The position numbers and the translations under genes were made by a program. Shown piece after piece: positions 6,295-33,332 of a stretch of DNA of 62,078 nt. How positions within the stretch are numbered: position 1 is the first letter of the stretch; each line of letters opens with the position of its first letter. Source of the stretch: a virus; IMG/VR virus record IMGVR_UViG_3300034104_006372, positions 1 to 62,078 of that record; one strand, written 5' to 3'. A model generated the notes under the pieces. The model was given only the letters and a program-made list of their open reading frames with translations, made no database searches and was not told where the DNA came from.

Positions 6295-7920
6295 TTAAAG
6301 GGTGTTCAATCCGTTAATTTCAATTTTGCCATAGAATTCAGGACGTACCATCTTCTTAGCGTAACGAGTCAATAGACCTTTTCTTGGAGTAAAGGTATCT
6401 GGATCGTACACAAGTGGAGTCATGATCAATGGAATATAAGGAGAGAATACAGCACCAGTCTCAAGGAACTGAGCACCTCTAAATCCTAACAAGATTTGGT
6501 TTTCAAGCATGTAAGGGTTTTTGTAAACCTTAATCTTACCACCGCCTAAAGCACCAATTTTCTGTACTCCGAATGCGTAAGTTGACTTTTCAACATCACC
6601 ATCAACATCACCTGCAAATCCAGGGATAGATTCGATGATTGTAGAAACAGCTGGAGACAATACCATGAAGTTTGCACCACCACGAAGAGTTTTCTGGTGA
6701 ATAATGTTGCTTAACTTCTGGATTTTAGTTCCAAGAGTTTGGAACCACTGACCTTGGCTGTTATAGAAGCCTAAGTTAGAGAACGTTCCGTTAGATCCGT
6801 TATCAACGATAGCAACGTTGTTAACTGCAGACCATACTTCAGTTCCAGCAGCAGCAGAATCCATCAACATATCCAAGATTTCAAGGTCAATTTCCAAAGA
6901 AATGTACTCAGAAAGGATAGAAGTCAATTCAGCTTCAGCATCAAGAGCATGGTAAGCATTAAGATCTTGAGCAAATTCTGGAGTCCATACAGCCTTCAAT
7001 TTACGAGTTTTAGCAACGATAGCAGAAGATTTCATCTGTACGTTGATTTCAGGGATTGAAATTGGGTTGTTATTGCTGTTCAATGCAGTGTTTCCATCTT
7101 CAAAATCACCTCTGTATTGGTCAGTTGGTTGCTTTGAGAAAGTTACAGTTACCAAAGAAGATTGAACTGGAGCTTGAGAACCAGAAACGATAAATACTAA
7201 GTTAGATCCAACAACTTTAGTGAATTGTGGCAATTGAACCGCACCAGTAATAGAACCAGTAGTCAAAGTAAATGCTCTAATACCTTCAGCATCATATCCA
7301 CTTAAGCCAGATAAAGCTACGCTAACGGTCTTGTAACCACCAGCAACTACAGAAGCAGAGTAGTCAGAATCAAATAACATGTCAGACCATGTAGCAGATC
7401 CAGTAGTACCAGTTACTACAGAAGCAGTGTTGTTAATAGAATATCCGAATCGACCAGCACCGTATAAACCACCAGCATTTGTGTTACCAAATGGTTGTTC
7501 TGCTGCGCTAGAAGAACCGTATAAAGAGTTACCAGCAGTAAATGGAGCTTTTGTAGTTCCATACTGGAAGTCAAGATAGAATACTAGACCAGAAGGTAAG
7601 TTCATTGGCTGAACAGAAACGAATTCTTTCGCTGCAATTTGACCAAATACTTTTCTTACCAATGGAAGAGCAACTCCTGCCCATTGTTCACCCACACCTG
7701 CAGTGAATGTACCTTGAGAAGCAGTACCACCACCAGTTTGAGATGTTTCAACTACTAATTGCTTAGCTTGGTTTTCTAAGATGATACTCATGTTGTTCTT
7801 ATGTGTACCAGCCAAACCTTCTAGCAATCCTGTTTTTTCCCACTTGCTAGCTAATCTAGCGGCATCACTCTGTACAGAGTGATATGGGTTTGCGCTTTCT
7901 AAAAGAGATTGTAAGCTCAT
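6295..7920 (-). CDS. gp23: Major capsid protein, gp23-like
   Basis: The 541-residue protein shows the gp23 signature blocks: VRKVFGQIAAKEFVSVQPMN with PSGLVFYLDF near residues 90-120, and near residue 300 KTRKLKAVWTPEFAQDLNAYHALDAEAEL, which matches T4 KSRQLKAAYSIELAQDLRAVHGMDADAEL. It builds the capsid hexamers. The prohead protease cuts gp23 after (I/L)-x-E; here ILE49 and LLE34 are candidate sites. T4 gp23 has 521 residues. It is followed by a strong terminator. The ATG is preceded by an A-rich leader without Shine-Dalgarno. The codon use of this gene seems more even than that of its neighbours, as for a highly made protein. Confidence 0.96.
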   Translation of the reverse strand: MSLQSLLESANPYHSVQSDAARLASKWEKTGLLEGLAGTHKNNMSIILENQAKQLVVETSQTGGGTASQGTFTAGVGEQWAGVALPLVRKVFGQIAAKEFVSVQPMNLPSGLVFYLDFQYGTTKAPFTAGNSLYGSSSAAEQPFGNTNAGGLYGAGRFGYSINNTASVVTGTTGSATWSDMLFDSDYSASVVAGGYKTVSVALSGLSGYDAEGIRAFTLTTGSITGAVQLPQFTKVVGSNLVFIVSGSQAPVQSSLVTVTFSKQPTDQYRGDFEDGNTALNSNNNPISIPEINVQMKSSAIVAKTRKLKAVWTPEFAQDLNAYHALDAEAELTSILSEYISLEIDLEILDMLMDSAAAGTEVWSAVNNVAIVDNGSNGTFSNLGFYNSQGQWFQTLGTKIQKLSNIIHQKTLRGGANFMVLSPAVSTIIESIPGFAGDVDGDVEKSTYAFGVQKIGALGGGKIKVYKNPYMLENQILLGFRGAQFLETGAVFSPYIPLIMTPLVYDPDTFTPRKGLLTRYAKKMVRPEFYGKIEINGLNTL

Positions 7921-9477: not shown

Positions 9478-10089
9478 TTAAAATATTGGGCAACTGCCTT
9501 TAGAGCAGAGTATTTCGTGTATAATGCTATTTACTTTATTGTAGTTTGCAGTAGGATATTCTTTACCTTCTCGCAATACTGACATAAATGAGCCTGGATT
9601 GGATGGGGTAGAAACAAAATCCCAACATAGTAATTCGAAATCATCTTGTACTTCCATTACATTACCTCTTTGCTCTAATGAACCCATTCCTCGGGAAGAT
9701 ACACCTACAGTGATGTTGTTATGGATTAATGCTTGTAAAATTTGACCAGATGGAGTATCAAGTATTTCAATTTTACCCATTACATTATCTCCATCCCACC
9801 AGTAATCGGAAATGATGTGAGATACATTTTTTAGGTTAATAATTTGGGATTCAGGGTGGTCTAATTCACCTATAGCACGTCTTTGTTTGATTTGCTCGGA
9901 ATATTTTTTCATTTCACGATCCCACAGATCACGAGCATAATATCTACCATTACCATTTTTAACCTCAGCTGTAGCTAGTATACCTACTACTATTAGAGGT
10001 TTCTTTACCCCACCAACATTTTCAGTTAGTGGGGCAGCAGAAATTTTAATAGGATGGGTTTCTATAAGTAATTGCTTATTCATTATCAA
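9478..10089 (-). CDS. gp21: Prohead core serine protease, gp21-like
   Basis: A 203-residue protein (T4 gp21: 212). It has the family blocks NGNGRYYARDLWDREM (46-60), GELDHPE with the catalytic His at 78, and VGVSSRGMGS with the catalytic Ser at 131 or 132. The family matures the prohead by cutting scaffold, capsid and internal proteins after (I/L)-x-E. Its own N-terminus carries LIE10 and LTE23, possible self-cleavage sites as in T4. The start overlaps the upstream gene by 14 bp. Family call is secure; this enzyme is the likely processor of the tagged proteins at 17-33 kb. Confidence 0.93.
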   Translation of the reverse strand: MIMNKQLLIETHPIKISAAPLTENVGGVKKPLIVVGILATAEVKNGNGRYYARDLWDREMKKYSEQIKQRRAIGELDHPESQIINLKNVSHIISDYWWDGDNVMGKIEILDTPSGQILQALIHNNITVGVSSRGMGSLEQRGNVMEVQDDFELLCWDFVSTPSNPGSFMSVLREGKEYPTANYNKVNSIIHEILCSKGSCPIF

Positions 10090-11548
10090 ATGAGGATTCG
10101 TCTACCATTTCTTTGGTATATTTTTTACCACCAGTCATTTTTCCGTACATAGCCTCCATCTTAGCTTTAGTTTTTTCTAAGATTTTGATTTCTTTTTGCA
10201 TTTCTTTTACTTTAACTTTATCTACTAATTCAGCTAGATTAGCATCTTCTTGGATCATGCTTAATCTTTCCATTTTAGCAGAAATCATTTCGCTAACTCT
10301 ATCTAATTTAGCTTCCATAGCAACGATTCCAGCTTGGGTATCGATTTCGGCTAGGTCAGCATCTAAAGATTCTTTTTTAACTTTCTTTTTTTCGGGTTTT
10401 GGTTCAGCTTCTTCAACATTTTCAACTTCAGCTGTTATTTCTACTTCTTCACCAATTGCATTTTCGTTAATAGATTGGATTTTAGTTTCTAGATCGCCAA
10501 TTGAGTTTTCTAAATCATCTAATTGTTCTTGATACCAATCACCTGATGCAGCAAATTCTAGATCTGTTTCTTTTTCCATAGCAGAAATCAAATCAAAATA
10601 TGCCTTTTTAAGCATGTTTAACTTTTGTGTTAAAGTTTGCTTCTTATTAATTACTTTTTGATCAGGAGCAACACCTGCTTTTTTCTGCATTTGAAGCATT
10701 CTGAGTTGAGCCATTTTCTCTTCAAAGTCAGAATCTTCACTTAAACTTTTGCCTCCTTTACCTTTAATTATCTGGTTAGCTGCTGCTTGCAATTCTGCAT
10801 CGTGTTTTTTAAACCATTGAACTACATCTTCGTTTTTCTTCATAGCAACTCTTCTTTGAGCACCACTGTCTATATAATCAGTGTCAAAATCGTACCATCT
10901 CATTATTTTTACAGCTAAATCTTCAGCAGAAGTAGAAAGTGGGTTTGTAATTTCTTCTTTTACCAAAGATTCTTTAACCATTTTCTTTAGCTTATCAGAA
11001 TAGCCAGATGAAGCATATTTTCCAGATACCTCTTCCATTTTTGTTTCTTGATATCCTAATCCTTTAACACCAAATGCAGCATTTTTCATATAGTACTGTC
11101 CGTCTTTAGCTAAGTTTTTTTCTACAATTTTACGAAGCTCGTCTAATGTTTTGTCTGGGTTTTCTCTGCCTTCAAAATATAGACCATTCAATACTTCTTG
11201 ACCAATTTGGTTGTCAAGATTAGTTTTGTTTTTATAGTCGTAGTTATGATCTTGAATGTCTTCTACTTCTTTGGTTGTTTTTTTCTCTACTGCTTTAGCT
11301 TCTTCAGCTAAAAATTGAGCGAATTTATTTTCCCAAGCTGTTTTTGGAGAAGCCTCAATTGTATTGATTGGTTTTAAATCAACATAATTTTCGGAAATCA
11401 CACCACGTGTTTTTAACATTTTAGATGCTTCTTCAAATCCCATTGGATTTGTTAGCATGTTAGGGAATTGCTTTTTAGCCTCAGTAAGGAATATACCCTT
11501 GTGACCTTTTCCCTCTTTAATCAAATTGTATTGTTCTTGTAGAGTCAT
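10076..11548 (-). CDS. Probable prohead core / internal virion protein
   Basis: This 490-residue protein is charged and mostly helical, with coiled-coil segments at about 275-340 and 400-480 (KEMQKEIKILEKTKAKMEAM). It carries several (I/L)-x-E sites, for example LTE22, VISE (52-53 region) and ESLVKEE. It lies in the head operon between the portal and the protease, overlapping the protease start by 14 bp, a place held in T4 by the core genes 67 and 68. No enzymatic motif is visible. Similar long helical proteins exist in environmental T4-like phages. Core role is inferred from position and composition. Confidence 0.6.
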   Translation of the reverse strand: MTLQEQYNLIKEGKGHKGIFLTEAKKQFPNMLTNPMGFEEASKMLKTRGVISENYVDLKPINTIEASPKTAWENKFAQFLAEEAKAVEKKTTKEVEDIQDHNYDYKNKTNLDNQIGQEVLNGLYFEGRENPDKTLDELRKIVEKNLAKDGQYYMKNAAFGVKGLGYQETKMEEVSGKYASSGYSDKLKKMVKESLVKEEITNPLSTSAEDLAVKIMRWYDFDTDYIDSGAQRRVAMKKNEDVVQWFKKHDAELQAAANQIIKGKGGKSLSEDSDFEEKMAQLRMLQMQKKAGVAPDQKVINKKQTLTQKLNMLKKAYFDLISAMEKETDLEFAASGDWYQEQLDDLENSIGDLETKIQSINENAIGEEVEITAEVENVEEAEPKPEKKKVKKESLDADLAEIDTQAGIVAMEAKLDRVSEMISAKMERLSMIQEDANLAELVDKVKVKEMQKEIKILEKTKAKMEAMYGKMTGGKKYTKEMVDESSFDNE

Positions 11549-11794: not shown

Positions 11795-12100
11795 TTAAAA
11801 TAAGTTTTTAACTTCTAGACCAGAGCCTTTCTGCACATAGTTTCCTTTTTTATCTTTAGGAACCAGCTTGTATTGGAATTTCTTAACGTAGTAGTTATCT
11901 TTAACACCTTCGGGTCCTGCTTTAGGGCCTGGTCCTAAAGTAGCACCTACATTTTCTTCAACAGGTGTATATCCTAGTTTTTTTAGCTCTTTGGGCATTT
12001 TAACTTTTTTAGCAAATGCGTATTTAGTTAAATAACCACCTGCTCCACCCGAGGTGGACATTTCTTTTAGCTTATCGGATATTTTATATTTGTACCCCAT
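11795..12100 (-). CDS. Small basic head-operon protein
   Basis: The 101-residue protein is Lys- and Gly-rich with the block STSGGAGGYLTKYAFAKK near residues 15-32 and a Gly/Pro hinge (GATLGPGPKAGPEG). Similar blocks recur in small proteins of marine T4-like phages. It overlaps the previous gene by 17 bp. Function unknown; a DNA- or core-associated head protein is plausible from charge and neighbours. Confidence 0.55.
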   Translation of the reverse strand: MGYKYKISDKLKEMSTSGGAGGYLTKYAFAKKVKMPKELKKLGYTPVEENVGATLGPGPKAGPEGVKDNYYVKKFQYKLVPKDKKGNYVQKGSGLEVKNLF

Positions 12101-12953
12101 TTGCTTTTCTAATTTCTTGAACTAGTTCATAGTATTGCATTAAATCCACTAAATGATCATCATTAACTTTAGCAGTTTTGTCAAGCTCAACTAAATGTTT
12201 AGCTATTTCTTCAACTTTAATTTTGGTAGCTGGATCTTGGATTGTTTTAATGCTCTTGCTTAAATGTTCTTTTAGTTCAGCAATTTTAGTGTTGTAAAAT
12301 TCTCTTAAATGTGGGGCAGAGTCTACAGAATTGATAAATTCTTTTAAGATTTGTTTTTGTTCAATAGAAATAGAATCATATTTCTCGTTGAATTTCTCTA
12401 AAAGAATCTTGTATGTGAGAATTCTTAAATCTTTGTCGTATGCTTGAAATTCTTGTATTACGTTTTCTTTTGAATCTTGTGATTTAAGTTCCTGCTTGGT
12501 TAAAAATTCTAATAATGTAATTTTACAATCAACCATTTGAGCAGGAGCAACATAAGAAGCACCACTTACACCTTCAATCAACATATACAAAGAAGCTAGT
12601 TCTTTATAATTTTTAATTTTAATGTTAAAAAATGTATCTAAATCGTAGTGGGATTTAATTTCTTTGATTAGATTGTATTTCTGTCTCTTTAAAGTACTTT
12701 TATTTAAGTTAACAGAAGATTCTAAAATGGTACTAACGACAGTATTTGCTCTGCTTTCGTTTAATACTTTAGATTTTAGAATAGATTCATATAGTTTATA
12801 TTCTCTACCTAGTTCACTTTTGACAAAATATTTTTTCATAATGTCAATAGCGGGTGAATCTACTCCTTTTAAGGTATCTATAGTTACCTGTCTAACAAGT
12901 AACTCAAATAATATACCCGTGTTTTTGTATTTGCTGTGCTTGATTTTCATCAA
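12084..12953 (-). CDS. Conserved head-operon protein of unknown function
   Basis: A 289-residue all-helical protein starting MKIKHSKYKNTGILFELLVRQV, a beginning I recall from unannotated proteins beside the portal gene in other environmental T4-like phages. Helices dominate (EFINSVDSAPHLREFYNTKIAELKEHL), without signal peptide, metal site or nucleotide motif. It directly follows the portal gene and has its own late element at 12968-12977. It may help portal-initiated prohead assembly (a role filled by gp40 or core proteins in T4); this is inference. Confidence 0.6.
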   Translation of the reverse strand: MMKIKHSKYKNTGILFELLVRQVTIDTLKGVDSPAIDIMKKYFVKSELGREYKLYESILKSKVLNESRANTVVSTILESSVNLNKSTLKRQKYNLIKEIKSHYDLDTFFNIKIKNYKELASLYMLIEGVSGASYVAPAQMVDCKITLLEFLTKQELKSQDSKENVIQEFQAYDKDLRILTYKILLEKFNEKYDSISIEQKQILKEFINSVDSAPHLREFYNTKIAELKEHLSKSIKTIQDPATKIKVEEIAKHLVELDKTAKVNDDHLVDLMQYYELVQEIRKANGVQI

Positions 12954-17689: not shown

Positions 17690-18220
17690 TTAGGGATTAA
17701 TAACATTCAGAATCTGCTGTATTCGTTCCTCTGTTGAACCACTGATAGTGTGAGCAGATTTAAGTTTATAAGAATATGATTGCAATAAGTTTTGTATACT
17801 TACATCAATAAGATGTCTATATGTTGAATTAGTTTCACGCACACCATTATCCTCTATTGGTAATCCTTCAGAAGAAATATAAAATATGTAATCATATTCT
17901 CCCAAGAAACTAGATGCATATTGTTCGTATTTATCTTTATCTAAAACATTAATAGATTGAGCATTAGCTGTAAATGCCATAACATCTATAATAGTACGAT
18001 CTGTAATTAGATTATCATGCATTAATTCAGCACAACGTTCCGCCAAAAACACTGTTTGACCTTTTAATGTAGAATCCGTATTTAATGGAATACCTAAATC
18101 TCTTAAATATTTTGAACGTTCAGTAGCAAATTTATATTTTTTAAATTGTGGGAGTTTTTGTAAAGCATTTACCAATGTAGTTTTTCCTACACTCATTGTT
18201 CCTGTCAATCCTATCTTCAT
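17690..18220 (-). CDS. NadR-like P-loop nucleoside kinase
   Basis: The 176-residue protein has the P-loop GTMSVGKT at residues 7-14, ERSKYLRDLG, and LITDRTIIDVMAFT, the pattern of the NadR C-terminal kinase (AAA_28-type) family, which phosphorylates nicotinamide riboside or related nucleosides. Length fits the kinase domain alone. The gene lies 4 nt after a cytidylyltransferase-type gene, so the pair mirrors the two domains of NadR split over two genes. A part in NAD salvage is possible, but substrate is not determined by the visible residues. Confidence 0.7.
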   Translation of the reverse strand: MKIGLTGTMSVGKTTLVNALQKLPQFKKYKFATERSKYLRDLGIPLNTDSTLKGQTVFLAERCAELMHDNLITDRTIIDVMAFTANAQSINVLDKDKYEQYASSFLGEYDYIFYISSEGLPIEDNGVRETNSTYRHLIDVSIQNLLQSYSYKLKSAHTISGSTEERIQQILNVINP

Positions 18221-18224
18221 ATTC

Positions 18225-18644
18225 TTATTTGTTTAATAGCCAACTTGATGATTGAACTTTAGCTCCCAATCCATCAATTAATTCTATTTCATTATCAACG
18301 CAAACCTGTGTTTCTGGAATGGTATCATTGTTTTGATCACCCCCATTTGCAAATGCAAGTCTATATTCTCCCCCGTAAATGTCCGAAAGATATTTCAGGG
18401 TAGCACATTGTGTTTTGTCTTTATCTATAGAAATCATACAATTATCTACAATCCTTAAATTACGGATGATCATCAAACGTTCAAGTTCGTCTTGAAATTC
18501 TTTAGATCCCTTTAGTTCCCGTTGGTGATCAGAGTTAATAATCACAAATAGTTTGTGATTATAACCTTTTGCTCTGTGGAAAAGTTCAAGATGACCTTTA
18601 TGGAGCGGGTTAAAATACCCGCTCACTATAACCATTTTTTTCAT
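18225..18644 (-). CDS. Cytidylyl/adenylyltransferase-like nucleotidyltransferase
   Basis: The 139-residue protein has the family start SGYFNPLHKGHLELFHRAK with the HxGH motif near residues 18-21, a central IINSDHQRELKGSKEF, and the C-terminal block LAFANGGDQNNDTIPE followed by VQSSSWLL. This matches small RfaE/TagD-type nucleotidyltransferases common in marine phages. They join CTP or ATP to a phosphorylated sugar, alcohol or NMN-like substrate. Paired with the NadR-like kinase downstream it could act in nucleotide-cofactor synthesis; alternatively it may serve surface-sugar activation. Confidence 0.75.
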   Translation of the reverse strand: MKKMVIVSGYFNPLHKGHLELFHRAKGYNHKLFVIINSDHQRELKGSKEFQDELERLMIIRNLRIVDNCMISIDKDKTQCATLKYLSDIYGGEYRLAFANGGDQNNDTIPETQVCVDNEIELIDGLGAKVQSSSWLLNK

Positions 18645-18648
18645 ACGT

Positions 18649-18912
18649 TTAATTACGATAACCGTCTTCCAATTGGGACTTCATTGATGGATTTTTGTAC
18701 CACGGCAAACCTTCTTGATCTCTATGAGCTTGCTCAAATTGTTCTTTAGTGTACTGGATTCCATGAATATAGTATTCGGCTCGTTTTGTATCGCCTTCAG
18801 GGATTAAAGCAGGACCGTCCCAGTTATGCAATTTACCATCTTTAATGTGAGCGATGGTACCATCAGCTTTCTTTAGTCTTTTAACTACGATTGGTTTTTT
18901 AGTATTGCTCAT
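18649..18912 (-). CDS. Conserved small phage protein (DGPA-type)
   Basis: The 87-residue protein contains GKLHNWDGPALIPEGD and RAEYYIHGIQYTKEQFE, a combination I remember from unannotated proteins in many T4-like marine phages. It has no membrane segment. A Bacteroidetes-type promoter (18936-18966) precedes it, so it may be expressed early with the two enzymes after it. The function is unknown. Confidence 0.65.
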   Translation of the reverse strand: MSNTKKPIVVKRLKKADGTIAHIKDGKLHNWDGPALIPEGDTKRAEYYIHGIQYTKEQFEQAHRDQEGLPWYKNPSMKSQLEDGYRN

Positions 18913-18935
18913 AATTCAATATTTTTATCAATGTT

Positions 18936-18966
18936 AAATATACGAACTCTATTTAGGAGTTCAAAA
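18936..18966 (-). promoter_or_regulatory. Host-type promoter TTTG-N19-TATATTT
   Basis: On the minus strand TTTTG (18962-18966) is followed after 19 bp by TATATTTA (-7 box, 18935-18942). This fits the Bacteroidetes -33/-7 consensus TTTG and TAnnTTTG. It serves the operon starting at 18912 and lies within the end of the FAD gene. Confidence 0.65.
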
Positions 18967-20254
18967 TGTCTTCAGCAACATAAATCCCTTGTGCACCACT
19001 CACCGTTATACCTCTAGCAGATAATGCGTCTCCCACAAAGTGAACATTGGGGAACTCGGTCAAGGCTAGGTTAGTATAATCGACGAGCGGCTCAGGTGAC
19101 AAATATTTTACTTCAGGAACATAAATGCCCCAGTCATGTTCAAGTGTTGGAAACACTTTTTTCATATCTTCAATAAAATCTTCAATATATTTAAAATATC
19201 CTTTAAATGCCGGCTTTATAATATTTTCTAATTCTCTAGAACTAAAGGCAACTGCAGATACTGTTTCGCCTTCAGAAGTTAAAGATGGACGTCTAGAAGG
19301 AGAATAGTATAAACCTGTTCCACTAGTATTTACATTAGATACTAAATTTCTAGACCATTCAAATGGATCTTCAATACCTGGAATTTCCATTAAAATGCCA
19401 AAATTGGTCATGTTGTTGCGGAATTCCTCGCCCTTCTTAGCGTGGCCGTTATAGCTCACATTTCCGTATGTTTCCTCTACTGCTACGTAAGCAGCGTTGT
19501 TATTTGTGCAGAATGAACGAAGCGAAACACCTGTGTCCTCAAACTTACGATACAATTTAAAATCGTAGGATATGTCAATTAGTTTTTGGAAGTGTTTTTG
19601 TGGTGCTTCAAATCGAACACCAATTTGTACTGGCTTTGGCTCATCTGGTAGATTGTATTGTTGAGCTAGTTCTTGAGCAAAATCAATACCTGATTTGCCT
19701 ACTGCAAATATAAGTGTATCGTATTTTAAATCCGCATTGTGGGTATAAATTCTGTTATTGTTAAAGTCAATATCTTCAACTTGAGTTTCCCATTCAAATC
19801 TAACGCCTTTATCAACTAAATATTGATACCATGCTTTAGCAATTTCATGTAGGAAATTAGAACCAATATGCCATACAGGAAACATTCTCAAGCCAAAGTA
19901 TGGTTTGATAAACTCGGGTTCCTCTTGTGGATCCGAACAAAAAATTTCTTCTGGTTTAGGGTGGAAACGTCTAAAGTTAGCAATTACTTGATCCATCAAT
20001 TCCATTGCTTTATCCTCTCCACAATATTTTGATAATTGACCTCCAATAGCAGTGTGATAAGTTAGCTTACCATCACTCCATCCACCTGCTCCTAGCATAC
20101 CTGTCATTACTTCTTCAGGTAAGCGGTTATGTGGATCACTTCCTTTGTCTATAATTGTGATTAATTCTCCAGGATATCCATTGTCTACTAATTTAGTTGC
20201 GGCATTAATTCCTGCTACTCCAGCTCCTACAATTACGATTTTATCTTGTTTCAT
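18953..20254 (-). CDS. FAD-dependent oxidoreductase (COG2509-like)
   Basis: The 433-residue protein has an N-terminal Rossmann dinucleotide site VIVGAGVAGINAA (GxGxxG at 10-15), the block GAGGWSDGKLTYHTAIGG near 55-72, a central IFAVGKSGIDFAQ, GLYYSPSRRPSLT, and a C-terminal FVGDALSARGITVSGAQGIYVAED that closes the FAD site. The GAGxxSDGKL block is characteristic of the poorly known FAD dehydrogenases of COG2509. Substrate unknown. It has its own host-type promoter and follows a terminator, so it is a separate, probably early, unit. It would be an unusual metabolic gene for a phage. Confidence 0.8.
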   Translation of the reverse strand: MKQDKIVIVGAGVAGINAATKLVDNGYPGELITIIDKGSDPHNRLPEEVMTGMLGAGGWSDGKLTYHTAIGGQLSKYCGEDKAMELMDQVIANFRRFHPKPEEIFCSDPQEEPEFIKPYFGLRMFPVWHIGSNFLHEIAKAWYQYLVDKGVRFEWETQVEDIDFNNNRIYTHNADLKYDTLIFAVGKSGIDFAQELAQQYNLPDEPKPVQIGVRFEAPQKHFQKLIDISYDFKLYRKFEDTGVSLRSFCTNNNAAYVAVEETYGNVSYNGHAKKGEEFRNNMTNFGILMEIPGIEDPFEWSRNLVSNVNTSGTGLYYSPSRRPSLTSEGETVSAVAFSSRELENIIKPAFKGYFKYIEDFIEDMKKVFPTLEHDWGIYVPEVKYLSPEPLVDYTNLALTEFPNVHFVGDALSARGITVSGAQGIYVAEDILNS

Positions 20255-20379: not shown

Positions 20380-20952
20380 TTAGCTATATATAAATTTAAT
20401 AACATCATCAAGTTTATCTTTAGCTTTTGGATTAGTTTTGGCGTAATTCTTTAGTTTATCTACAATAAAATATCTTTTTACTACATCAGAATCAGCTGCA
20501 TTTTTTACATTTTGAATGAGAGTTTTAGCCATTGGGTCATTGCTATCCATAGCTAAAAAGAAAGATGCGGGGTCAAATTTGTATTCTTCATCTGAAGGTA
20601 ATTCATCCAAAGTTACAGTAGCTCCAAACTTGATATCTCCGTTAGGGAGTAATTCTACGTTAATGTCAGGATTACCTTCCAAAGTATCTTTGCCACCTAC
20701 AGAAGCTAGATATTTTGATAGAGCGTTAAATTCATCAGCATTAGGGTATGCTTCTTCATCTCCATATTCTTCTTTCTCCCATACACCTTCAAAATATTCT
20801 CCTTCTTCCATTTCATCGCTTACACTAGCATCCCACATGCCAGATATATAATCTTCAAATTGTTCAATATTTTCGTTTAATTGTTCTTCAGTTATGATAC
20901 CCGCTAATCTCTGCATTCTGCGGAATTGTTCATTTAAAATTTGCTTTGCCAT
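20380..20952 (-). CDS. Tagged internal-protein candidate (copy 1)
   Basis: A 190-residue acidic protein. Residues 1-28 (MAKQILNEQFRRMQRLAGII then TEEQLNEN) are nearly identical to the starts of the next two genes. The LNE7 and LNE26 triplets fit the (I/L)-x-E site of prohead proteases. The C-terminal 60 residues (FDPASFFLAMDSNDPMAKTL) are shared with the next gene, whereas the middle is unrelated. No enzymatic motif. I infer a capsid-targeted internal protein; the C-terminal domain is a new paralogous helical module. Confidence 0.65.
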   Translation of the reverse strand: MAKQILNEQFRRMQRLAGIITEEQLNENIEQFEDYISGMWDASVSDEMEEGEYFEGVWEKEEYGDEEAYPNADEFNALSKYLASVGGKDTLEGNPDINVELLPNGDIKFGATVTLDELPSDEEYKFDPASFFLAMDSNDPMAKTLIQNVKNAADSDVVKRYFIVDKLKNYAKTNPKAKDKLDDVIKFIYS

Positions 20953-20965
20953 TGTTTTGTTATTT

Positions 20966-21523
20966 TTAGCTATTTATAAACTCAATAGCAGCATCAAGTT
21001 TACCTTTAACTTCTGGATTAGCTTTAGCGTGATCTTTTAGTTTGTTTATAATAGTAGATCTTTTAGATAGATCAGAATCAGCTACTTTCTTTATGTTTTG
21101 GATAAAAGATTTTGCATTTGGATCTTTACTATCCATAGCTGAAAAGTAAGATGCAGCATTGAATTCGTTTTCTTCATTTAATTGTCCAGAAGCTAACTCT
21201 CTGATCATATCAAATAATTCAGACGCATCCATATCATCTTCTAGATCAACACCTAAAGTTCTTTCATTAATAGCATTAATTAACTCTTCAGCAGAAGAAA
21301 CATTCATTTGAGAATTTAAATTGCTATAATCTTCTTCCTCAGCCTCAATATCGTCCAACATTTCTAATTCAGATTGGAGGAAATTAGCTTTGATAGTATC
21401 AAAGTTTTGGCTAACAAACTTAACCATCTCACTTGCTACATTTTCATTTAATTGCTCTTCGGTTATGATACCTGCTAGTTTTTGCATTCTGCGAAATTGT
21501 TCGCTTAAAATTTGCTTTGCCAT
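20966..21523 (-). CDS. Tagged internal-protein candidate (copy 2)
   Basis: This 185-residue protein is a paralogue of the 20380-20952 product: the same 28-residue tag (MAKQILSEQFRRMQKLAGII) and the same C-terminal module (FNAASYFSAMDSKDPNAKSF, then IQNIKKVADSDLSKR), with a different acidic middle (EMLDDIEAEEEDYS). The tag ends in LNE26, a possible prohead-protease site. The two genes are 13 bp apart and arose by tandem duplication. Role unknown. Confidence 0.65.
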   Translation of the reverse strand: MAKQILSEQFRRMQKLAGIITEEQLNENVASEMVKFVSQNFDTIKANFLQSELEMLDDIEAEEEDYSNLNSQMNVSSAEELINAINERTLGVDLEDDMDASELFDMIRELASGQLNEENEFNAASYFSAMDSKDPNAKSFIQNIKKVADSDLSKRSTIINKLKDHAKANPEVKGKLDAAIEFINS

Positions 21524-21535
21524 TATTTTATTAGT

Positions 21536-22078
21536 TTATTTTACTGTTCCGCCTTTAGCTGTTTCTTTAAACTTAAAGGTTAAGATATACCAAAATCCAT
21601 CTTGCTGACTAAAGCCATATATCATATTTGGATATTTTTCAAAAATTTGTTTTAATATTTCATTACCCAAATTATCAACATATTTCTTTATTTCTGGATT
21701 GTTAAACCAATTTCCTTTTGCTGATATTGCGCTTGAAGTGATGTTTTGTCCAAATTTCTCTGCTGCTTTATATGACCAATCATTACCCCCACCTACCATT
21801 ACTTTAGCAACAGATTCTGCAGTTATTGCTACCAATACTCTTTCATCTGGTTGGTCTGTTACTATTATTTGGACTGCTTGATCTCCTTCTCCAATTTTTT
21901 TAGTTTTATCAGTTTCAATCTTACTTCTTAATTCAGGTCGAAATCCCTTACTCTTTAAAAAGGAATAAAGTTGTTTAGACATTTGTTTTAGTTCCAAAAT
22001 ATCCTCATTTAACTGTTCTTCAGTGATAAGACCAGCCAACACCTGCATTCTGCGAAATTGTTCGTTTAGGATTGCCAT
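21536..22078 (-). CDS. Tagged internal-protein candidate with a distinct body
   Basis: The 180-residue protein carries the same N-terminal tag in slightly shorter form (MAILNEQFRRMQVLAGLITE) but its body is unrelated to the other two: a mixed alpha/beta domain (LYSFLKSKGFRPELRSKI, VQIIVTDQPDERVLVAITAE, and GFWYILTFKFKE). The body resembles a small substrate-binding or ADP-ribosyl-type fold but no active-site motif is clear. Reuse of one tag on different bodies is the main evidence that the tag is an address signal. Confidence 0.6.
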   Translation of the reverse strand: MAILNEQFRRMQVLAGLITEEQLNEDILELKQMSKQLYSFLKSKGFRPELRSKIETDKTKKIGEGDQAVQIIVTDQPDERVLVAITAESVAKVMVGGGNDWSYKAAEKFGQNITSSAISAKGNWFNNPEIKKYVDNLGNEILKQIFEKYPNMIYGFSQQDGFWYILTFKFKETAKGGTVK

Positions 22079-23140: not shown

Positions 23141-23460
23141 TGTTTTTTATCTCGTATAAGTAATTCACCTAGTACCTCTAATCGACCTACCTCCCTCTGG
23201 AATTCAACAGCGGTCATATTCAATGAAATACTTTTTAATGTGCTATCAAATTCTTTTTTAGCTGCTTCTTCGTCAAATTTACCAGCAGTTGCTTTTTTGT
23301 AATATGGAGCCTTTACTTTAAAGTGATGCCATGTTAACAAAGCTAATCCACCTTTTTCCTCAGCTGTAGCTGCTATTTTAGCAGCACCTTCACCTCGTGT
23401 AGCAGCAAATTCTTCAAAGCTTTCTTTAGCTTCGGTTAGTAGTTGAAGTAGTTTTATCAT
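23137..23460 (-). CDS. Small internal-protein candidate
   Basis: A 107-residue helical protein beginning MIKLLQLLTEAKESFEEF; LTE10 followed by Ala is exactly the form of the T4 internal-protein cleavage site (FIAE|A). The body is helical and basic/acidic mixed (KKEFDSTLKSISLNMTAVEF). ATGA overlaps tie it to both neighbours. No known domain. The most economical idea is a capsid-targeted internal protein. Confidence 0.6.
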   Translation of the reverse strand: MIKLLQLLTEAKESFEEFAATRGEGAAKIAATAEEKGGLALLTWHHFKVKAPYYKKATAGKFDEEAAKKEFDSTLKSISLNMTAVEFQREVGRLEVLGELLIRDKKQ

Positions 23461-23963
23461 GATTTTTTATTTTTTATAGGAGCATATCCGGAACCATAGG
23501 GTGCTGCTTTACCAGATTGTGGATCTGATGTTTCTTTTAATTTATTTAAACGTTGTGTTTTTGCTTTAGAAGATTCTTTGCGAGATTCAATATAGTCTAG
23601 AGCACGTTTTAAACGAGATTTTACCTCAGCATCTTTAGCTTTACCGTATGCAGCTCTAACACGTTGGTGTATTAAATTAATAATTTGTGACTGGCGAGCG
23701 TGAGATTTAGCTTTAAATGAATCTTTATTTAACGTATCAACTATGTCTTCCTTAGTTTTAAATTTAATAGATACAGTATCGCTTGGATTTTCGTCTGTGT
23801 ATAGGCGACGACCCGATCCTTTAGGTTTTTTGCCAGTACCAATTTTAGGATCTGCTTCTTCTAAACCACCAGGTGTATTTAATTTTTTACCAGTTTTGGT
23901 ATCAGTAGTATACCCACAAGTTCCTTCAATAATTTCTTGTAATATATCAAGTAGCTTTATCAT
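23457..23963 (-). CDS. Basic DUF5872-like protein with capsid-targeting-like N-terminus
   Basis: I choose the start at 23963 (MIKLLDILQEI) because this ATG overlaps the upstream stop as ATGA; an ATG 15 bp earlier is less likely. LQE10 is a possible protease site. The body (168 aa in total) contains GSGRRLYTDENPSDTVSIKF and SHARQSQIINLIHQRVRAAY, a domain I remember as DUF5872, found in phages and large viruses of algae. It is highly basic, so DNA binding inside the head is plausible. The DUF number is from memory. Confidence 0.65.
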   Translation of the reverse strand: MIKLLDILQEIIEGTCGYTTDTKTGKKLNTPGGLEEADPKIGTGKKPKGSGRRLYTDENPSDTVSIKFKTKEDIVDTLNKDSFKAKSHARQSQIINLIHQRVRAAYGKAKDAEVKSRLKRALDYIESRKESSKAKTQRLNKLKETSDPQSGKAAPYGSGYAPIKNKKS

Positions 23964-25138
23964 TTGGTTTTGCCCCATGTTTTGCCTTTACCTGAATCTT
24001 TACATCTAGCAGCTGTTGGTCTACAAGATGGATATTTTGCTCGTTCTTCACCTTTTTGGCGTCCACAAGGTTTGTATCCTGTTATTTTTCCATCTTTACG
24101 AATAGGAGAATTACAATCTACCCAACCACCTGTTTTACCTGGGGCTCCTTGGCGTTTAAACCATTTACGGAGAGATTCATCTTCTTTCAGAATTTCTTTT
24201 AATTGTGAAGTATTTAATATTTTAACTTTCATACTCTTATTAGCAGCTAAACCAGCATATAATCTAGTTCTTCCACCAATAACATATAAAGTTCCATTAA
24301 TATTAATTAACACAGGAGGTTCATAATTCCCTTTTACTACATTATCATAGTTTTGTACTGGGTTGTATCCTCTGTTTCTGTTTTCTTTTTCATCTCTTTT
24401 TTTCATGTAATCAGCATATTCTTGACGAGAATCTGGTGATTTACTAACACTGATCATATCTTTTATAAGAGATTCTTCTCCAGGTTTGTTATTAAAATTT
24501 TTGAGATTAGATATCTGAGAAGGAGATATGGTAGTTTCAGGAGTATTATCTATAATAGGAATTAGTCTATTTACTGATTCTTCATCATTTTTAAAACCTG
24601 CGTTGTTTATTACTTTAGATATGTTTAGGTCTTTTTGTCCTACCAATTCCCATGCTTCTTCATCACTTCCTTCTTTAATACCTTTCCATATTTTACCTTG
24701 ACGGCATCGTACTACTGCTCCAGATTTGTAAGCGGAAGGTTTATCAAATTTGCGATCTGCTATGCGCAAGCATCTATCTCTTTTGGTTTTTTTTTCCAAA
24801 AGCATTTCTTTAACTAACGACTTTAATCGAGTTTCTAATACATTTACTTGACCTGCTCTAAAGAAATTTACAGCAGGTATTTTGCGTATTTTTTCGATTA
24901 AACTATTGATTTGAGTATCTTTATCAAATTCAGTGAATGGGAAAGTGTCAAATTTTAAGCTTAATATACCAACGTGGTTTGGATTGCTTGCCGCACTTTC
25001 TTCCTCGTTTTTAGGGGTAAATGTTACAATCGTTATTCCCTCAATTGAGCGAATATCTGAGATAAGATCTGCTTGGGGGGTGATTGTGGTATTTAAACCT
25101 GCTTCTCCGCTTATTTGATATGTTCTATTGTATGACAT
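23960..25138 (-). CDS. Multidomain protein with ParB-like domain and Cys-rich C-terminus
   Basis: The 392-residue protein joins several modules. Residues 1-110 are a beta/alpha domain (ITIVTFTPKNEE). About 110-155 hold KKTKRDRCLRIADRKF and PSAYKSGAVVRCRQGK, a repeated Cys motif of virus proteins. About 195-315 is ParB/Srx-like (VLININGTLYVIGGRTRLYA, equal to the VDGxHRxxA step). The last 75 residues (GGWVDCNSPIRKDGKITGYK, then PCGRQKGEERAKYPSCRPTA) form a basic domain common in environmental phages. ParB-like folds can be CTPases or nucleases. It may be an injected DNA-acting protein; this is inference. Confidence 0.65.
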   Translation of the reverse strand: MSYNRTYQISGEAGLNTTITPQADLISDIRSIEGITIVTFTPKNEEESAASNPNHVGILSLKFDTFPFTEFDKDTQINSLIEKIRKIPAVNFFRAGQVNVLETRLKSLVKEMLLEKKTKRDRCLRIADRKFDKPSAYKSGAVVRCRQGKIWKGIKEGSDEEAWELVGQKDLNISKVINNAGFKNDEESVNRLIPIIDNTPETTISPSQISNLKNFNNKPGEESLIKDMISVSKSPDSRQEYADYMKKRDEKENRNRGYNPVQNYDNVVKGNYEPPVLININGTLYVIGGRTRLYAGLAANKSMKVKILNTSQLKEILKEDESLRKWFKRQGAPGKTGGWVDCNSPIRKDGKITGYKPCGRQKGEERAKYPSCRPTAARCKDSGKGKTWGKTK

Positions 25139-29953: not shown

Positions 29954-30529
29954 CTACCTTTTAAGCGATTCTAAATATTTAACCACTTCTTCTACGCTAT
30001 TATTTACTAGTTCTACATTTATTTTACCTCTCCATTTTTCAACATCCCCGTCTTCGGAAACAAAAGAATTGTTGCTTTCGCTTAATTTTTCTTCAATCCA
30101 CAATTTATATTCAATAATTTTATTCTCTATTTCATTGTTATGGATTCTGTTTTCGTATTCTTCCCACTTGCCTTCTTTTCTTAGGTTTGCCTCCATATCA
30201 ATAACGCAGTTAAAACACATTTTATGTATGTTATAAAATGGTTTATCGTTACGATTTTTCATTACTTTGCTGCAAACTGGACATAACAAAGGCATTACAT
30301 GGTATTTTTTAGCTTTATCAAATTTAGTTACATTTTGTTTAATACCACCTTTAATAGTCCAAGTTCTACCATCTATTTCCCATATATCTCCTTCAGTATG
30401 AAATTCTTCTTTTTTGGAAAATCCAACGCTTGAACGTGATTTTTCTCCATACTTACCTTGTACAAGATTACGAAGACGTTGTACATCTTTTTCTTTAAAG
30501 TCTTTCTTTAAAACTGATTCTTTACTCAT
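29954..30529 (-). CDS. Zinc-ribbon protein of unknown function
   Basis: A 191-residue protein with KEKDVQRLRNLVQGKYGEK, then GDIWEIDGRTWTIKGGIKQN and a probable zinc site CPVC (about residue 83) with CFNC (about 105). The zinc part and the following NCVIDMEANLRKEGKWEEYE helix recur in marine T4-like phages. It starts by a 4-bp overlap with the four-domain gene. A nucleic-acid or assembly role is possible; T4 has zinc-containing hub proteins, but no homology was established. Confidence 0.6.
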   Translation of the reverse strand: MSKESVLKKDFKEKDVQRLRNLVQGKYGEKSRSSVGFSKKEEFHTEGDIWEIDGRTWTIKGGIKQNVTKFDKAKKYHVMPLLCPVCSKVMKNRNDKPFYNIHKMCFNCVIDMEANLRKEGKWEEYENRIHNNEIENKIIEYKLWIEEKLSESNNSFVSEDGDVEKWRGKINVELVNNSVEEVVKYLESLKR

Positions 30530-32532
30530 AAACCTAATTGTTTTAATTGTTTAATGGTATTAGCAGTATTGGTATGAAGTATACCTATACCACCTGCTGC
30601 TTTCCATTGGTCTATATTTTTTTGTCTATCATCTATTAAAATAGAAGTTGGAGAAGCATATTCCTGTTTTTGAGAGGCATATTTTAAAATAAGCTTTACA
30701 CCAGGTAATTCTCGCTTTACCCAAACTCTTTTACCTAATTTAGAGGATTCTTCGCGTGATGGGGCAGACAATAGTATTGGATTATATTTTTTAATATAGT
30801 CCCATAGTTGTTTTCCGTCTGACATCCATTGCAGCGTAATCCAAAATTTGGCTCCTGCTTTAGAAAGTGGATCCCAAAATGCTTCTACCCCGTTAGCATC
30901 TGCTTGTTGGCTAGTCATACCTGTTAATTCTTGGTATCCACGATCAAAATCAACTAATACACTATCCATATCACAGTATATTGTATATTCTGTTTCTTCT
31001 TCCCTTAAACGGGCTAATTCCATAGCGTATGCGTTTAAGCCAAATGGATCTTTAGATTTCTTTTCCCTTAAACTATCGGACCAATTTCTAAAAGTAATGT
31101 TACCTTCCTCGTATGCTTCTCTTTCAATACCTTCTAAATAATCATCCTCGTTTGTATTAGTAGTTTTAATATCTCCGGTTCCAATTCTACCCTCTAGATT
31201 TTGGATGTGGTGAATCATTTCATGAGAAAATGATCGTACTATATCTTTAGGATGGCGTCCTTCAGTATATAATACAATTTCCATAGTTTTGGGTTTGTAA
31301 TACGCAGTTTTGCCTAAAAATTGTTTAGCATTTTCTGCATCTCCATGTTTGAATATTACTTTAGGTAAAGGAACAATATTCATCCCTTTATCTATCATAT
31401 GTTGAGTTAGCTCTTTAATTTTTTGCTTTATATCTATGTGCTGTGAATATGAAGCATTTTCGTTTAAAGAGTTGGATTTAGGTATATTTAAATCCTTAGT
31501 ATTAAAATAAGTTTTTAAATCAATACCTTTATTTTTAGCATCTTTTAAATCAATAGTTTCAGGAACTATACCTTCTTCCCATTCAGTTTCAGGAGTTGCT
31601 AAAACAACATCACTATCATTTAAAATAATAGCCTTTATTTCAGGTACATTTCCTATTTTAAAGGCACCTAAACGGTGATTACCATCCACAACTAAATATT
31701 TTCCAGGTAATAGTGGGTGTTTTAAAGCCACAACTGGGGAGAATGATTCTATACCTTTTTCTTTAACAGACTTTATCATTTTTTCAATATAAGATTTTTT
31801 TTCTGTATTGAAATAATTAAAATCTTTACCGGGTTCATTTCCAATGCTATCGCTAACTTTTAAAACTTTTACTTCTCCTTTTGGATTTTCAGCAATATCA
31901 CTTCCTTGAAAATTTGGATATATAATAGTTTTATCAGAAGGTTGATCTAAATTTTCTTGCATTTTACCAGATACTATTTGGTATACTTCCTTTTTTTCTT
32001 CGGGTGTTAAAACACTAGGTAGAAAGGGTTCAAACTTTTCAAATGATACTTTAGAAGCATTTCTAGCAGCTGTACCTGATACTCCACCTTTAGTTATAAT
32101 AGTTCTAGCCTCAATATTTGGGTAGTTGGTTATAGATTTGGTACGTGAACCAATATCTGTAAAATCTTGTTCATTGTCTTCTCTAGCACCTAAAATCCAT
32201 AATATTTCTCTTGTGGGGTGATTTTTTGCAAAATCATATACTGCTTTAATTGGGGGTAAAGAACTAAGTTCTATTTTAACCTTAAATGGTAGATACTTGT
32301 TGTATATTTCCCAAATTAATAAAGATTCCTCTTGCGATACACCATCACGTTCTTTGGAACCTACAAAAATTATAAATTCATCTATTTCTGGGTTTTGCTT
32401 AAGTGCTTCTTGCACAACAGCAAAATGACCTGCTGTAGGGGGTTTAAATCCACCTGCATATAAGGCAGTGGTTTGTTTTTTTTCTTCCTCGGGTAAGAAG
32501 TTTTTAATTATTTCTTGTACTAATCTATTCAT
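30526..32532 (-). CDS. Four-domain protein: nucleotidyltransferase, ParB-like, HExxH, HAD-like
   Basis: The 668-residue protein joins four enzyme-like modules. Residues 24-190: nucleotidyltransferase with YAGGFKPPTAGH (25-36), ending IITKGGVSGTAAR. Residues 245-310: ParB/Srx-like core GKYLVVDGNHRLGAFKIG. Residues 370-485: metallopeptidase-like with HEMIH (437-441) and REAYEEG as possible third ligand. Residues 514-668: HAD phosphatase with YCDMDSVLVDFD (519-530) and ILIDDRQKN (631-639), like 5'(3')-deoxyribonucleotidases. The N-terminus (MNRLVQEIIKNFLPEE) has an LPE15 site. No frameshift breaks it. Joint function unknown; processing by the prohead protease could separate it from a capsid tag. 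Confidence 0.75.
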   Translation of the reverse strand: MNRLVQEIIKNFLPEEEKKQTTALYAGGFKPPTAGHFAVVQEALKQNPEIDEFIIFVGSKERDGVSQEESLLIWEIYNKYLPFKVKIELSSLPPIKAVYDFAKNHPTREILWILGAREDNEQDFTDIGSRTKSITNYPNIEARTIITKGGVSGTAARNASKVSFEKFEPFLPSVLTPEEKKEVYQIVSGKMQENLDQPSDKTIIYPNFQGSDIAENPKGEVKVLKVSDSIGNEPGKDFNYFNTEKKSYIEKMIKSVKEKGIESFSPVVALKHPLLPGKYLVVDGNHRLGAFKIGNVPEIKAIILNDSDVVLATPETEWEEGIVPETIDLKDAKNKGIDLKTYFNTKDLNIPKSNSLNENASYSQHIDIKQKIKELTQHMIDKGMNIVPLPKVIFKHGDAENAKQFLGKTAYYKPKTMEIVLYTEGRHPKDIVRSFSHEMIHHIQNLEGRIGTGDIKTTNTNEDDYLEGIEREAYEEGNITFRNWSDSLREKKSKDPFGLNAYAMELARLREEETEYTIYCDMDSVLVDFDRGYQELTGMTSQQADANGVEAFWDPLSKAGAKFWITLQWMSDGKQLWDYIKKYNPILLSAPSREESSKLGKRVWVKRELPGVKLILKYASQKQEYASPTSILIDDRQKNIDQWKAAGGIGILHTNTANTIKQLKQLGL

Positions 32533-33332
32533 TTAGATAAGAATTGTTGTATTTTAGATTGTGCTTCTTCCTTAGAAACAGAATTGTTGATTATATTAGC
32601 TACCCCTTCGTCTTGCAGTAAAGTAGATACTTCTTGGCTTAATTGTTCTCTTGCTTTTTTAGCTCGAGCTTGCGCTTTAGGATTTTTTTCTTTAGTATCT
32701 TGTGGGGAAAATGGTTTAAGATATTTGTCTACAATAGATTCTAAATCTTTTAACTTTTCATCCTTTAAAGTATTAGATATAGATACAAAATTATTACCAA
32801 ACATTGATTTGTAAATATTATAATTTTTAGTTACCTCCGCCCAAGTACGTAATACAATAGCTGGGGCTAGACTTCTGTCGGTACCTCCAGATTTCTCAAA
32901 TCTATCTTGGTTTTGTTGCAATGCACGTTCTAAATCAGTATAAACGTATAACATAAATACTTCATACCCTGCATTTTCTAATTCGGATTTTAGCTCACTC
33001 GTTTGTTTAACAGATGAAGCTGTACCATCTAATATAAATGATTCTTGATTAGCTATAGCTTGTGGGATAGTTTCTTTCTTTAATTTAGAAGTTGCTTGAA
33101 CCATTGCTTGGGCAGCTGCACTTCTGTCCTCAGGACCAAGAGATTTTAAATCTAAAGAAATATTAGCCTGTTTTAGTAAGTCTATAAAGGTATTATCTAG
33201 ATTAAAGATTTTTAAACCACCTAAATCTAGACCCTTTAAAATAAATCCCTTCCCAGCTCCAGGAGCTCCAGCTAATATGATAGCTTTGGGGGTTCCTTGT
33301 ACTTCTTTTAACAGCTGCATTAAACTAATCAT
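32529..33332 (-). CDS. Zeta-toxin-like P-loop kinase with capsid-targeting-like N-terminus
   Basis: I set the start at 33332 (MISLMQLLKEVQGTPKAIIL), just after a late element at 33346-33355; a longer frame crosses that element and a hairpin. The 267-residue protein has Walker A GAPGAGKG (22-29), FNLDNTFIDL, FILDGTA, and DRSLAPAIVLRTWAEV, as in zeta-toxin/AAA_33 kinases, which phosphorylate small molecules or sugar nucleotides. The first ten residues end in LKE10, like T4 internal proteins. The C-terminus is a long charged helix. Possibly an injected effector; the substrate is unknown. Confidence 0.75.
   Translation of the reverse strand: MISLMQLLKEVQGTPKAIILAGAPGAGKGFILKGLDLGGLKIFNLDNTFIDLLKQANISLDLKSLGPEDRSAAAQAMVQATSKLKKETIPQAIANQESFILDGTASSVKQTSELKSELENAGYEVFMLYVYTDLERALQQNQDRFEKSGGTDRSLAPAIVLRTWAEVTKNYNIYKSMFGNNFVSISNTLKDEKLKDLESIVDKYLKPFSPQDTKEKNPKAQARAKKAREQLSQEVSTLLQDEGVANIINNSVSKEEAQSKIQQFLSK

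What the first reader, a model, noticed from the sequence alone, without database searches (positions are those of the whole stretch)
30526..32532. Four-domain fusion: nucleotidyltransferase + ParB-like + HExxH + HAD phosphatase
Seen: one unbroken 668-residue frame holds YAGGFKPPTAGH, VVDGNHRLGAF, HEMIH with downstream REAYEEG, and YCDMDSVLVDFD ... ILIDDRQ. Each is a known enzyme signature, but I do not know this combination. Inference: a multifunctional effector or nucleotide/cofactor remodeller, possibly with self-processing by the protease part.
Basis: partly seen in the sequence, partly recalled or inferred. Interest (0 to 1): 0.78.

Follow-up and report, generated by a model that had tools for sequence, protein, structure and literature searches.

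The report
Phage enzyme polyprotein cut in capsid
An uncultured relative of phage T4 encodes four unrelated enzyme domains in one chain, separated by what look like cutting sites of the phage's own capsid protease; it is probably packed into the virus head, cut into separate enzymes and injected with the DNA, and related phages swap enzyme modules at those same joints.

Summary
The 668-residue ORF (30526-32532, minus strand) is real, under purifying selection, and all four motifs lie in their expected folds: HxGH nucleotidylyltransferase (Z 17 to CoaD/PPAT), ParB/sulfiredoxin (Z 11), zincin metallopeptidase (Z 7.6 to Wss1 and IrrE), HAD 5'(3')-deoxyribonucleotidase (Z 15). It resembles the known 'polyvalent proteins' of phages. 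Relatives in metagenomic phages keep the first, third and last domains, but the ParB slot is exchangeable: sequences over 90% identical in the first domain carry nothing, another ParB-like module or a basic module there. Domain joints carry [L/I]-x-E, the T4 prohead-protease (gp21) consensus: 35 of 41 joints after redundancy reduction versus 17 expected. The window encodes a gp21-family protease (PF03420, E=4e-30). The upstream P-loop kinase gene begins with a 10-residue T4-type capsid-targeting sequence; that pattern picks exactly three of 189 T4 ORFs, all known gp21 substrates. Best reading: a head-packaged polyprotein, cut by the prohead protease into separate enzymes and injected with DNA. 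Cleavage and packaging are inferred, not shown. New variant of a known kind.

The parts
30526..32532 (-). 668-aa polyprotein ORF (NT - ParB - zincin - peptide - HAD)
32488..32496 (-). L-P-E (residues 13-15) ending a 15-residue amphipathic N-terminus; capsid-targeting-like propeptide
   Evidence: [LI]xE in this stretch in 23/23 relatives; pLDDT <50 at residues 10-16
31963..32475 (-). HxGH nucleotidylyltransferase domain, residues 20-190 (GGFKPPTAGH; VSGTAAR)
   Evidence: VIA Z 17.3 to E. coli PPAT/CoaD, Foldseek PPAT/NadD; weak Pfam PF01467 below its cut-off
31954..31962 (-). M-Q-E (191-193; I-Q-E in relatives), predicted prohead-protease site 1
31501..31932 (-). ParB/sulfiredoxin-fold domain, residues 201-344 (DGNHR); exchangeable module
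   Evidence: Z 10.8 to Caulobacter ParB, 9.9 to sulfiredoxin; phrog_4715 E=7.7e-5; absent or replaced in L003, L005, L006
31459..31467 (-). L-N-E (356-358), predicted site 2
   Evidence: linker pLDDT <50
31075..31449 (-). Zincin metallopeptidase domain, residues 362-486; H437-E-x-x-H441, E470/E472
   Evidence: Z 7.6 to Wss1 and IrrE, 7.4 to a DPC-repair protease (6mdx), 6.8 to ArdC
31063..31071 (-). L-R-E (488-490), predicted site 3
31000..31062 (-). 21-residue peptide KKSKDPFGLNAYAMELARLRE, reused as a unit in 14 distinct contexts, ends in predicted site 4 (L-R-E 509-511)
30529..30990 (-). HAD 5'(3')-deoxyribonucleotidase domain, residues 515-668
   Evidence: phrog_2643 E=2e-28; Z 15.1 to 3bwv, 14.6 to human cdN 4yih
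32529..33332 (-). P-loop kinase (zeta-toxin-like) with N-terminal MISLMQLLKE, a T4-type 10-residue capsid-targeting sequence
   Evidence: PF06414 E=4e-16; CTS conserved in relatives; start chosen at the internal Met28
9478..10089 (-). Prohead protease of the T4 gp21 family (candidate processing enzyme)
   Evidence: PF03420 E=3.6e-30, phrog_207 E=2e-57
6295..7920 (-). Major capsid protein; N-terminal 58 residues hold LLE, LLE, ILE, VVE
   Evidence: phrog_138 E=4e-62; sites
23457..23978 (-). Small gene: MIKLLDILQE targeting sequence + modules (GTCGY, GTGKK, PYGSGY) that fill the variable slots of P0001 relatives

Best explanation
The protein is a virion-delivered polyprotein of a T4-like phage. 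Its N-terminus takes it into the prohead core, as T4 capsid-targeting sequences do. The phage's gp21-type protease then cuts it after [L/I]-x-E at the joints, giving a nucleotidylyltransferase, a ParB-fold protein, a zincin metallopeptidase, a short peptide and a HAD nucleotidase. These sit in the head and are ejected with the DNA to act at the start of infection. Because each module is bounded by its own protease sites, modules can be added, lost or swapped without breaking the others. Shown here: the ORF, four folds, conserved catalytic residues, module exchange, conserved LxE at joints, presence of the protease, and CTS-bearing partner genes. Inferred: packaging, cleavage, ejection, and the substrates of each enzyme.
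For: 1) gp21-family protease in the window (PF03420 E=3.6e-30) and in 5 of 8 long relatives' contigs; gp21 cuts after L/I-X-E (PMC9026906). 2) LxE within 28 aa of each domain joint: 23/23, 22/27, 29/31, 22/26, 28/30; with one representative per cluster (50-60% identity), 35 of 41 against 16.6 expected from within-window shuffles (four of five joints p<0.01). Outside the folded cores LxE is 255 vs 177+-12 expected, inside cores 112 vs 149+-11; reversed or shifted motifs depart much less outside the cores. 3) Without any motif search, alignment columns show E193 17/20, E358 17/20, E511 13/16, with mostly hydrophobic P3 and variable P2. 4) A 10-residue CTS pattern hits exactly ipII, ipIII and gp24 among 189 T4 ORFs; here it is at N-terminal Met in 41/612 ORFs vs internal Met 6/2663, including the adjacent kinase gene, a cassette-only gene in the window and standalone HAD genes of relatives. 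5) The same modules recur in different positions and in other LxE/CTS genes. 6) Head-core genes between portal and protease are among the most LxE-rich of the window (14 vs 5.2 and 14 vs 7.7), as expected if this protease shares gp21's specificity.
Against: No proteomic or cleavage data. LxE is a short motif; total LxE count in this one protein is not raised (8 vs 9.8 expected), and four LxE fall within domains (residues 50, 73, 213, 372). Its N-terminus is 15 residues and does not match the strict 10-residue CTS pattern. Relatives led by a Pol-beta-type domain (immuto gp088, L018, L034, L037, L048) have no N-terminal CTS. Immediate neighbours include primase and exonuclease, not head genes; the exonuclease also has ILE near its N-terminus in one clade. 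The joint after the zincin is only weakly enriched among independent representatives (4/6, p=0.12).
Confidence: 0.68

Rival explanations
1. Polyvalent protein that processes itself: the zincin domain cleaves the linkers, before packaging or in the new host, as Iyer et al. 2017 propose for phage P1 DdrB.
For: Zincin is present in every complete relative that has the nucleotidyltransferase; zincin self-processing is the published proposal; fold matches include ArdC.
Against: LxE joints also occur in a cassette gene without any zincin (23457-23978) and at N-termini of standalone HAD and kinase genes. LxE is the consensus of the S77 protease family that the phage carries.
Confidence: 0.15
2. Uncut multifunctional cytoplasmic enzyme made during infection; the linkers are just flexible joins and LNE is a scar of module recombination.
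For: Neighbours are DNA-metabolism genes (primase, exonuclease). The Cr30 relative of the HAD is a lone enzyme in a nucleotide-metabolism operon with no N-terminal extension. Modules clearly recombine.
Against: A conserved Leu/Ile at P3 in low-confidence linkers is odd for a mere linker. P2 and P1' vary while P3 and P1 are kept, and codons at the joint vary, so selection seems to be on the peptide. CTS-type N-termini occur on partner genes and on standalone HADs.
Confidence: 0.14
3. A structural/scaffold role: enzyme folds repurposed as head-core filler, activity lost.
For: T4 core proteins are also LxE-cut; the basic modules look like DNA-binding internal proteins (inference from composition).
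Against: Catalytic motifs of NT, zincin, ParB and HAD are kept across the relatives that have them and evolve under purifying selection.
Confidence: 0.03

Closest known systems
Polyvalent proteins of phages and conjugative elements (Iyer et al. 2017, PMC5512222)
   Same: Several unrelated enzyme domains in one chain; zincin MPTase and ParB/Srx-fold domains; variable architecture; encoded by a phage with portal/terminase; thought to be injected.
   Different: HxGH nucleotidylyltransferase and HAD deoxyribonucleotidase were not found named in the parts of that paper read or searched here; joints here carry L/I-x-E of a trans-acting prohead protease instead of relying on self-cleavage; modules also occur as separate capsid-targeted genes.
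T4 internal head proteins (IPI-III, Alt) with capsid-targeting sequence, cut by gp21 (PMC9026906)
   Same: Short N-terminal peptide ending in L/I-x-E; gp21-family protease in the genome; cargo ejected with DNA (in T4).
   Different: T4 cargo has one functional protein per gene, trimmed at its ends; here several domains in one chain are separated by internal sites.
Giant-phage inner-body / ejection proteins (phiKZ, SPN3US; PMC5694885)
   Same: Packaged proteins with propeptides removed by an S80 prohead protease after x-x-E.
   Different: Removal of propeptides; release of several enzymes from one precursor was not found described in the papers searched here.
Flavobacterium phage immuto gp089-gp087 locus
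   Same: Same gene order: primase, exonuclease, gene at the kinase position, NT+zincin polyprotein, HAD, then the 191-aa protein.
   Different: HAD is a separate gene and the polyprotein begins with a Pol-beta-type nucleotidyltransferase.

Membership tests
Polyvalent protein | Two or more domains with disparate biochemical activity in one chain | tested here: met
   Four distinct folds
Polyvalent protein | Zincin-like MPTase domain (commonest, not obligatory) | tested here: met
   HEMIH + conserved E470/E472, zincin fold incl. ArdC
Polyvalent protein | Carried by phage near virion genes, portal/terminase type | tested here: met
   Co-directional with MCP, portal, terminase and baseplate genes; the closest neighbours are primase and exonuclease
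Polyvalent protein | DdrB-like ParB subfamily marks (extra helix with Tyr, D/N at strand 2) | tested here: inconclusive
   ParB/Srx fold shown, subfamily marks not compared
Polyvalent protein | Packaged and injected | not testable with these tools
   needs virion proteomics
T4 gp21-type substrate / internal protein | gp21-family (S77) protease in the genome | tested here: met
   PF03420 E=3.6e-30
T4 gp21-type substrate / internal protein | L/I-x-E at exposed boundaries | tested here: met
   residue 191 is M in this copy (I in close relatives)
T4 gp21-type substrate / internal protein | N-terminal 10-20 residue capsid-targeting sequence | tested here: inconclusive
   15-residue helix ending LPE, LxE kept in 23/23 relatives, but not the strict T4-like 10-mer that the neighbouring kinase has
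T4 gp21-type substrate / internal protein | Cleavage observed | not testable with these tools
   needs biochemistry or virion proteomics
HxGH nucleotidylyltransferase superfamily (PPAT/NMNAT) | Rossmann-like fold with (H/T)xGH and SxTxxR-type motifs | tested here: met
   Z 17.3; TAGH and VSGTAAR in the sequence
Phosphopantetheine adenylyltransferase (CoaD) proper | Substrate specificity | not testable with these tools
   Fold closest to PPAT but NadD also matched
NT5C 5'(3')-deoxyribonucleotidase | HAD core with DxDxV and the NT5C fold | tested here: met
   phrog_2643 E=2e-28, Z 15.1 and 14.6 to deoxyribonucleotidases; Pfam NT5C below cut-off

The most novel reading that the evidence does not exclude
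Aquatic T4-like phages run a modular cargo system: prohead-protease sites act as standard connectors, so that effector modules can be strung into one capsid-targeted precursor or carried as separate capsid-targeted genes, exchanged freely, and released as independent proteins inside the head before injection.
Probability: 0.55. Interest if true: 0.78.

Novelty: new variant of a known kind. Interest (0 to 1): 0.62.

Why it matters
Polyvalent phage proteins have had no settled answer to how disparate domains in one chain become separate actors; zincin self-cleavage is the standing proposal. A simple sequence rule (L/I-x-E at each joint, plus a T4-type targeting peptide) gives a concrete alternative, lets one predict the injected cargo of uncultured phages from sequence, and is testable on a cultured phage (immuto) by virion mass spectrometry.

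Tried and rejected
Whole-protein Pfam gave only sub-threshold hits, so domains were tested by structure. A first mixed alignment of domain fragments (A1) was misaligned and dropped. Foldseek on the 668-residue model listed no zincin or ParB in the rows shown, because the HAD and NT domains fill the list and the ParB part was poorly modelled; folding residues 193-491 alone solved this. Total LxE count in this protein was considered as evidence and rejected: it is not raised. A DNA recombination site at LNE was considered: codons vary at the joint, so there is no support, though it is not excluded. Exonuclease ILE near the N-terminus: not kept in divergent relatives, treated as a false positive. 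Literature searches for virion proteomics of immuto and for LxE-bounded phage polyproteins found nothing in the held library.

Full report
OBSERVATION. The frame 30526-32532 is a 668-codon ORF on the minus strand with all quoted motifs. The window is a 62,078-base IMG/VR virus record with T4-like head and tail genes: major capsid protein, portal, terminase, prohead protease, PhoH, baseplate wedge. The gene overlaps a zeta-toxin-like P-loop kinase gene upstream and a 191-aa gene downstream, and follows exonuclease and DnaG-like primase genes; the same order is seen in Flavobacterium phage immuto.

FOLDS. AlphaFold2 on a 22-sequence alignment gave confident NT and HAD domains and low-confidence linkers. 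VIA-align: NT Z 17.3 to E. coli PPAT (rmsd 2.4, 152 residues), HAD Z 15.1 to a staphylococcal deoxyribonucleotidase-like protein (rmsd 2.6, 139 residues) and 14.6 to the human cytosolic enzyme. A second model of residues 193-491 (mean pLDDT 80) gave ParB Z 10.8 (Caulobacter ParB, rmsd 1.8, 76 residues), sulfiredoxin 9.9, and zincin Z 7.6 to Wss1 (rmsd 4.1, 102 residues) and to IrrE (rmsd 3.0, 85 residues), 7.4 to a DPC-repair protease, 6.8 to the antirestriction protein ArdC. The zincin Z values are moderate, but the rows for that part are mostly HExxH metalloproteins, and the two His and the downstream Glu residues are invariant. So none of the four motifs falls outside its expected fold.

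RELATIVES AND MODULES. 54 viral loci were fetched. NT, zincin and HAD recur in nearly all complete members; what lies between differs. L005 (NT 91% identical) has nothing between NT and zincin; L003 has another ParB-like module there; L006 has a basic module there and a Zn-ribbon after the zincin. In immuto, L023, L026, L053 and others HAD is a separate gene; L039 and L042 have HAD-zincin order. Modules (Zn-ribbon, GTGKK basic module, PYGSGY, DPFGLNAY, GTCGY) recur in different positions. The ParB module itself, 66-81% identical, occurs in two other proteins of ~170-kb phages next to basic modules.

JOINTS. Reading the linkers suggested [L/I]-x-E, the T4 gp21 consensus (PMC9026906). In windows of up to 28 residues at each joint it occurs in 124 of 137 cases. 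Since members are related, I kept one sequence per 50-60% identity cluster: 10/10, 8/11, 7/7, 4/6, 6/7, i.e. 35 of 41 against 16.6 expected from shuffling each window's own residues. LxE is in excess outside the folded cores and depleted inside them; control motifs depart far less outside the cores (E.[LI] 205 vs 177, [LI]..E 195 vs 175, against [LI].E 255 vs 177). Alignment columns taken without any motif search show the pattern P3 mostly hydrophobic, P2 free, P1 Glu. In this single protein the total LxE count is not raised; the signal is positional and family-wide.

PROTEASE AND TARGETING. The window encodes a Peptidase_S77 protein (E=3.6e-30); 5 of 8 long relatives' contigs do too. T4 internal protein III enters the head by a 10-residue CTS with targeting residues 4 and 7 and processing residues 8 and 10 (PMC9026906). 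The kinase gene upstream starts MISLMQLLKE in that register, kept as M-x-x-L-x-x-L-[LI]-x-E in most relatives, while primase and the 191-aa protein lack it. A pattern built on this hits exactly three of 189 T4 ORFs, ipII, ipIII and gp24, all gp21 substrates; it misses T4 substrates with longer or shorter propeptides. In the fetched phage DNA it lies at N-terminal Met 41/612 times and at internal Met 6/2663 (relatives are not independent). Hits include a window gene made only of the exchange modules (23457-23978). Standalone HAD genes of relatives have CTS-like starts (L053 MYKLLDILKE, L039 MINLKELIEE, immuto MGNLADLLLE), and so does cultured phage Melnitz (MKSIVEVTSINE), whereas the HAD of Cr30, set among nucleotide-metabolism genes, has no extension. 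P0001 itself has a 15-residue start ending LPE, not the strict 10-mer.

MECHANISM. Shown: folds, catalytic residues, selection (dN/dS 0.015-0.15 in nearly all close pairs), module exchange, LxE joints, protease gene, CTS-bearing partners. Inferred: entry into the prohead core, cleavage to about five products, ejection, action early in infection on nucleotides/cofactors (NT, HAD), on proteins (zincin) and on DNA/NTP (ParB fold). I put 0.68 on the packaged-and-cut polyprotein, 0.15 on zincin self-processing, 0.14 on an uncut enzyme.

KNOWN OR NEW. It works like, and in architecture is, a polyvalent protein (PMC5512222); it is also built like a chain of T4 internal proteins. The held literature searched here did not describe protease-site-bounded, exchangeable modules in such proteins, but that search covers only open-licence papers. 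Hence: new variant of a known kind.

Noticed in passing
window 17690-20254 (minus): P-loop kinase gene that looks NadR-kinase-like by eye (17690-18220), a second, standalone HxGH nucleotidyltransferase (18225-18644) and an FAD oxidoreductase (18953-20254) in a row: possible cofactor (NAD-type) gene set.
   Followed up: no
window 12084-12953 and 10076-11548 (minus): Genes between portal and prohead protease with excess of L/I-x-E (14 vs 5.2, 14 vs 7.7 expected): probable prohead core proteins shredded on maturation, in the T4 gp67/68 position.
   Followed up: partly
window 20380-22078 (minus): Three paralogous-looking small genes starting ..FRRMQ[RKV]LAG[IL]ITEEQLNE..; the scaffold candidate (7957-9390) ends ..ARWQKLAGIK. 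Possibly a second kind of targeting sequence.
   Followed up: no
window 23960-25138 (minus): Protein with a DRCLRIADRK..KPSAYKSGAVVRCR basic module, a ParB-like GGRTRL motif and a Cys-rich basic tail; modules again bounded by LxE.
   Followed up: partly
L018, L034, L037, L048 and immuto gp088 (L001:7125-9848): Relatives led by a Pol-beta-type nucleotidyltransferase domain (about 300 aa, MSG[AV]AGG start in several) without an N-terminal targeting sequence; how they would reach the head is unclear.
   Followed up: no
L021:4995-7817: A variable slot holds an ADP-ribosyltransferase-like module (weak PF15633 Tox-ART-HYD1 match, E=0.004); a related module is in L015: another kind of possible effector.
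   Followed up: no
immuto genome (L057): Phage carries genes annotated QueC/D/E/F, FolE and DpdA: 7-deazaguanine DNA modification.
   Followed up: no
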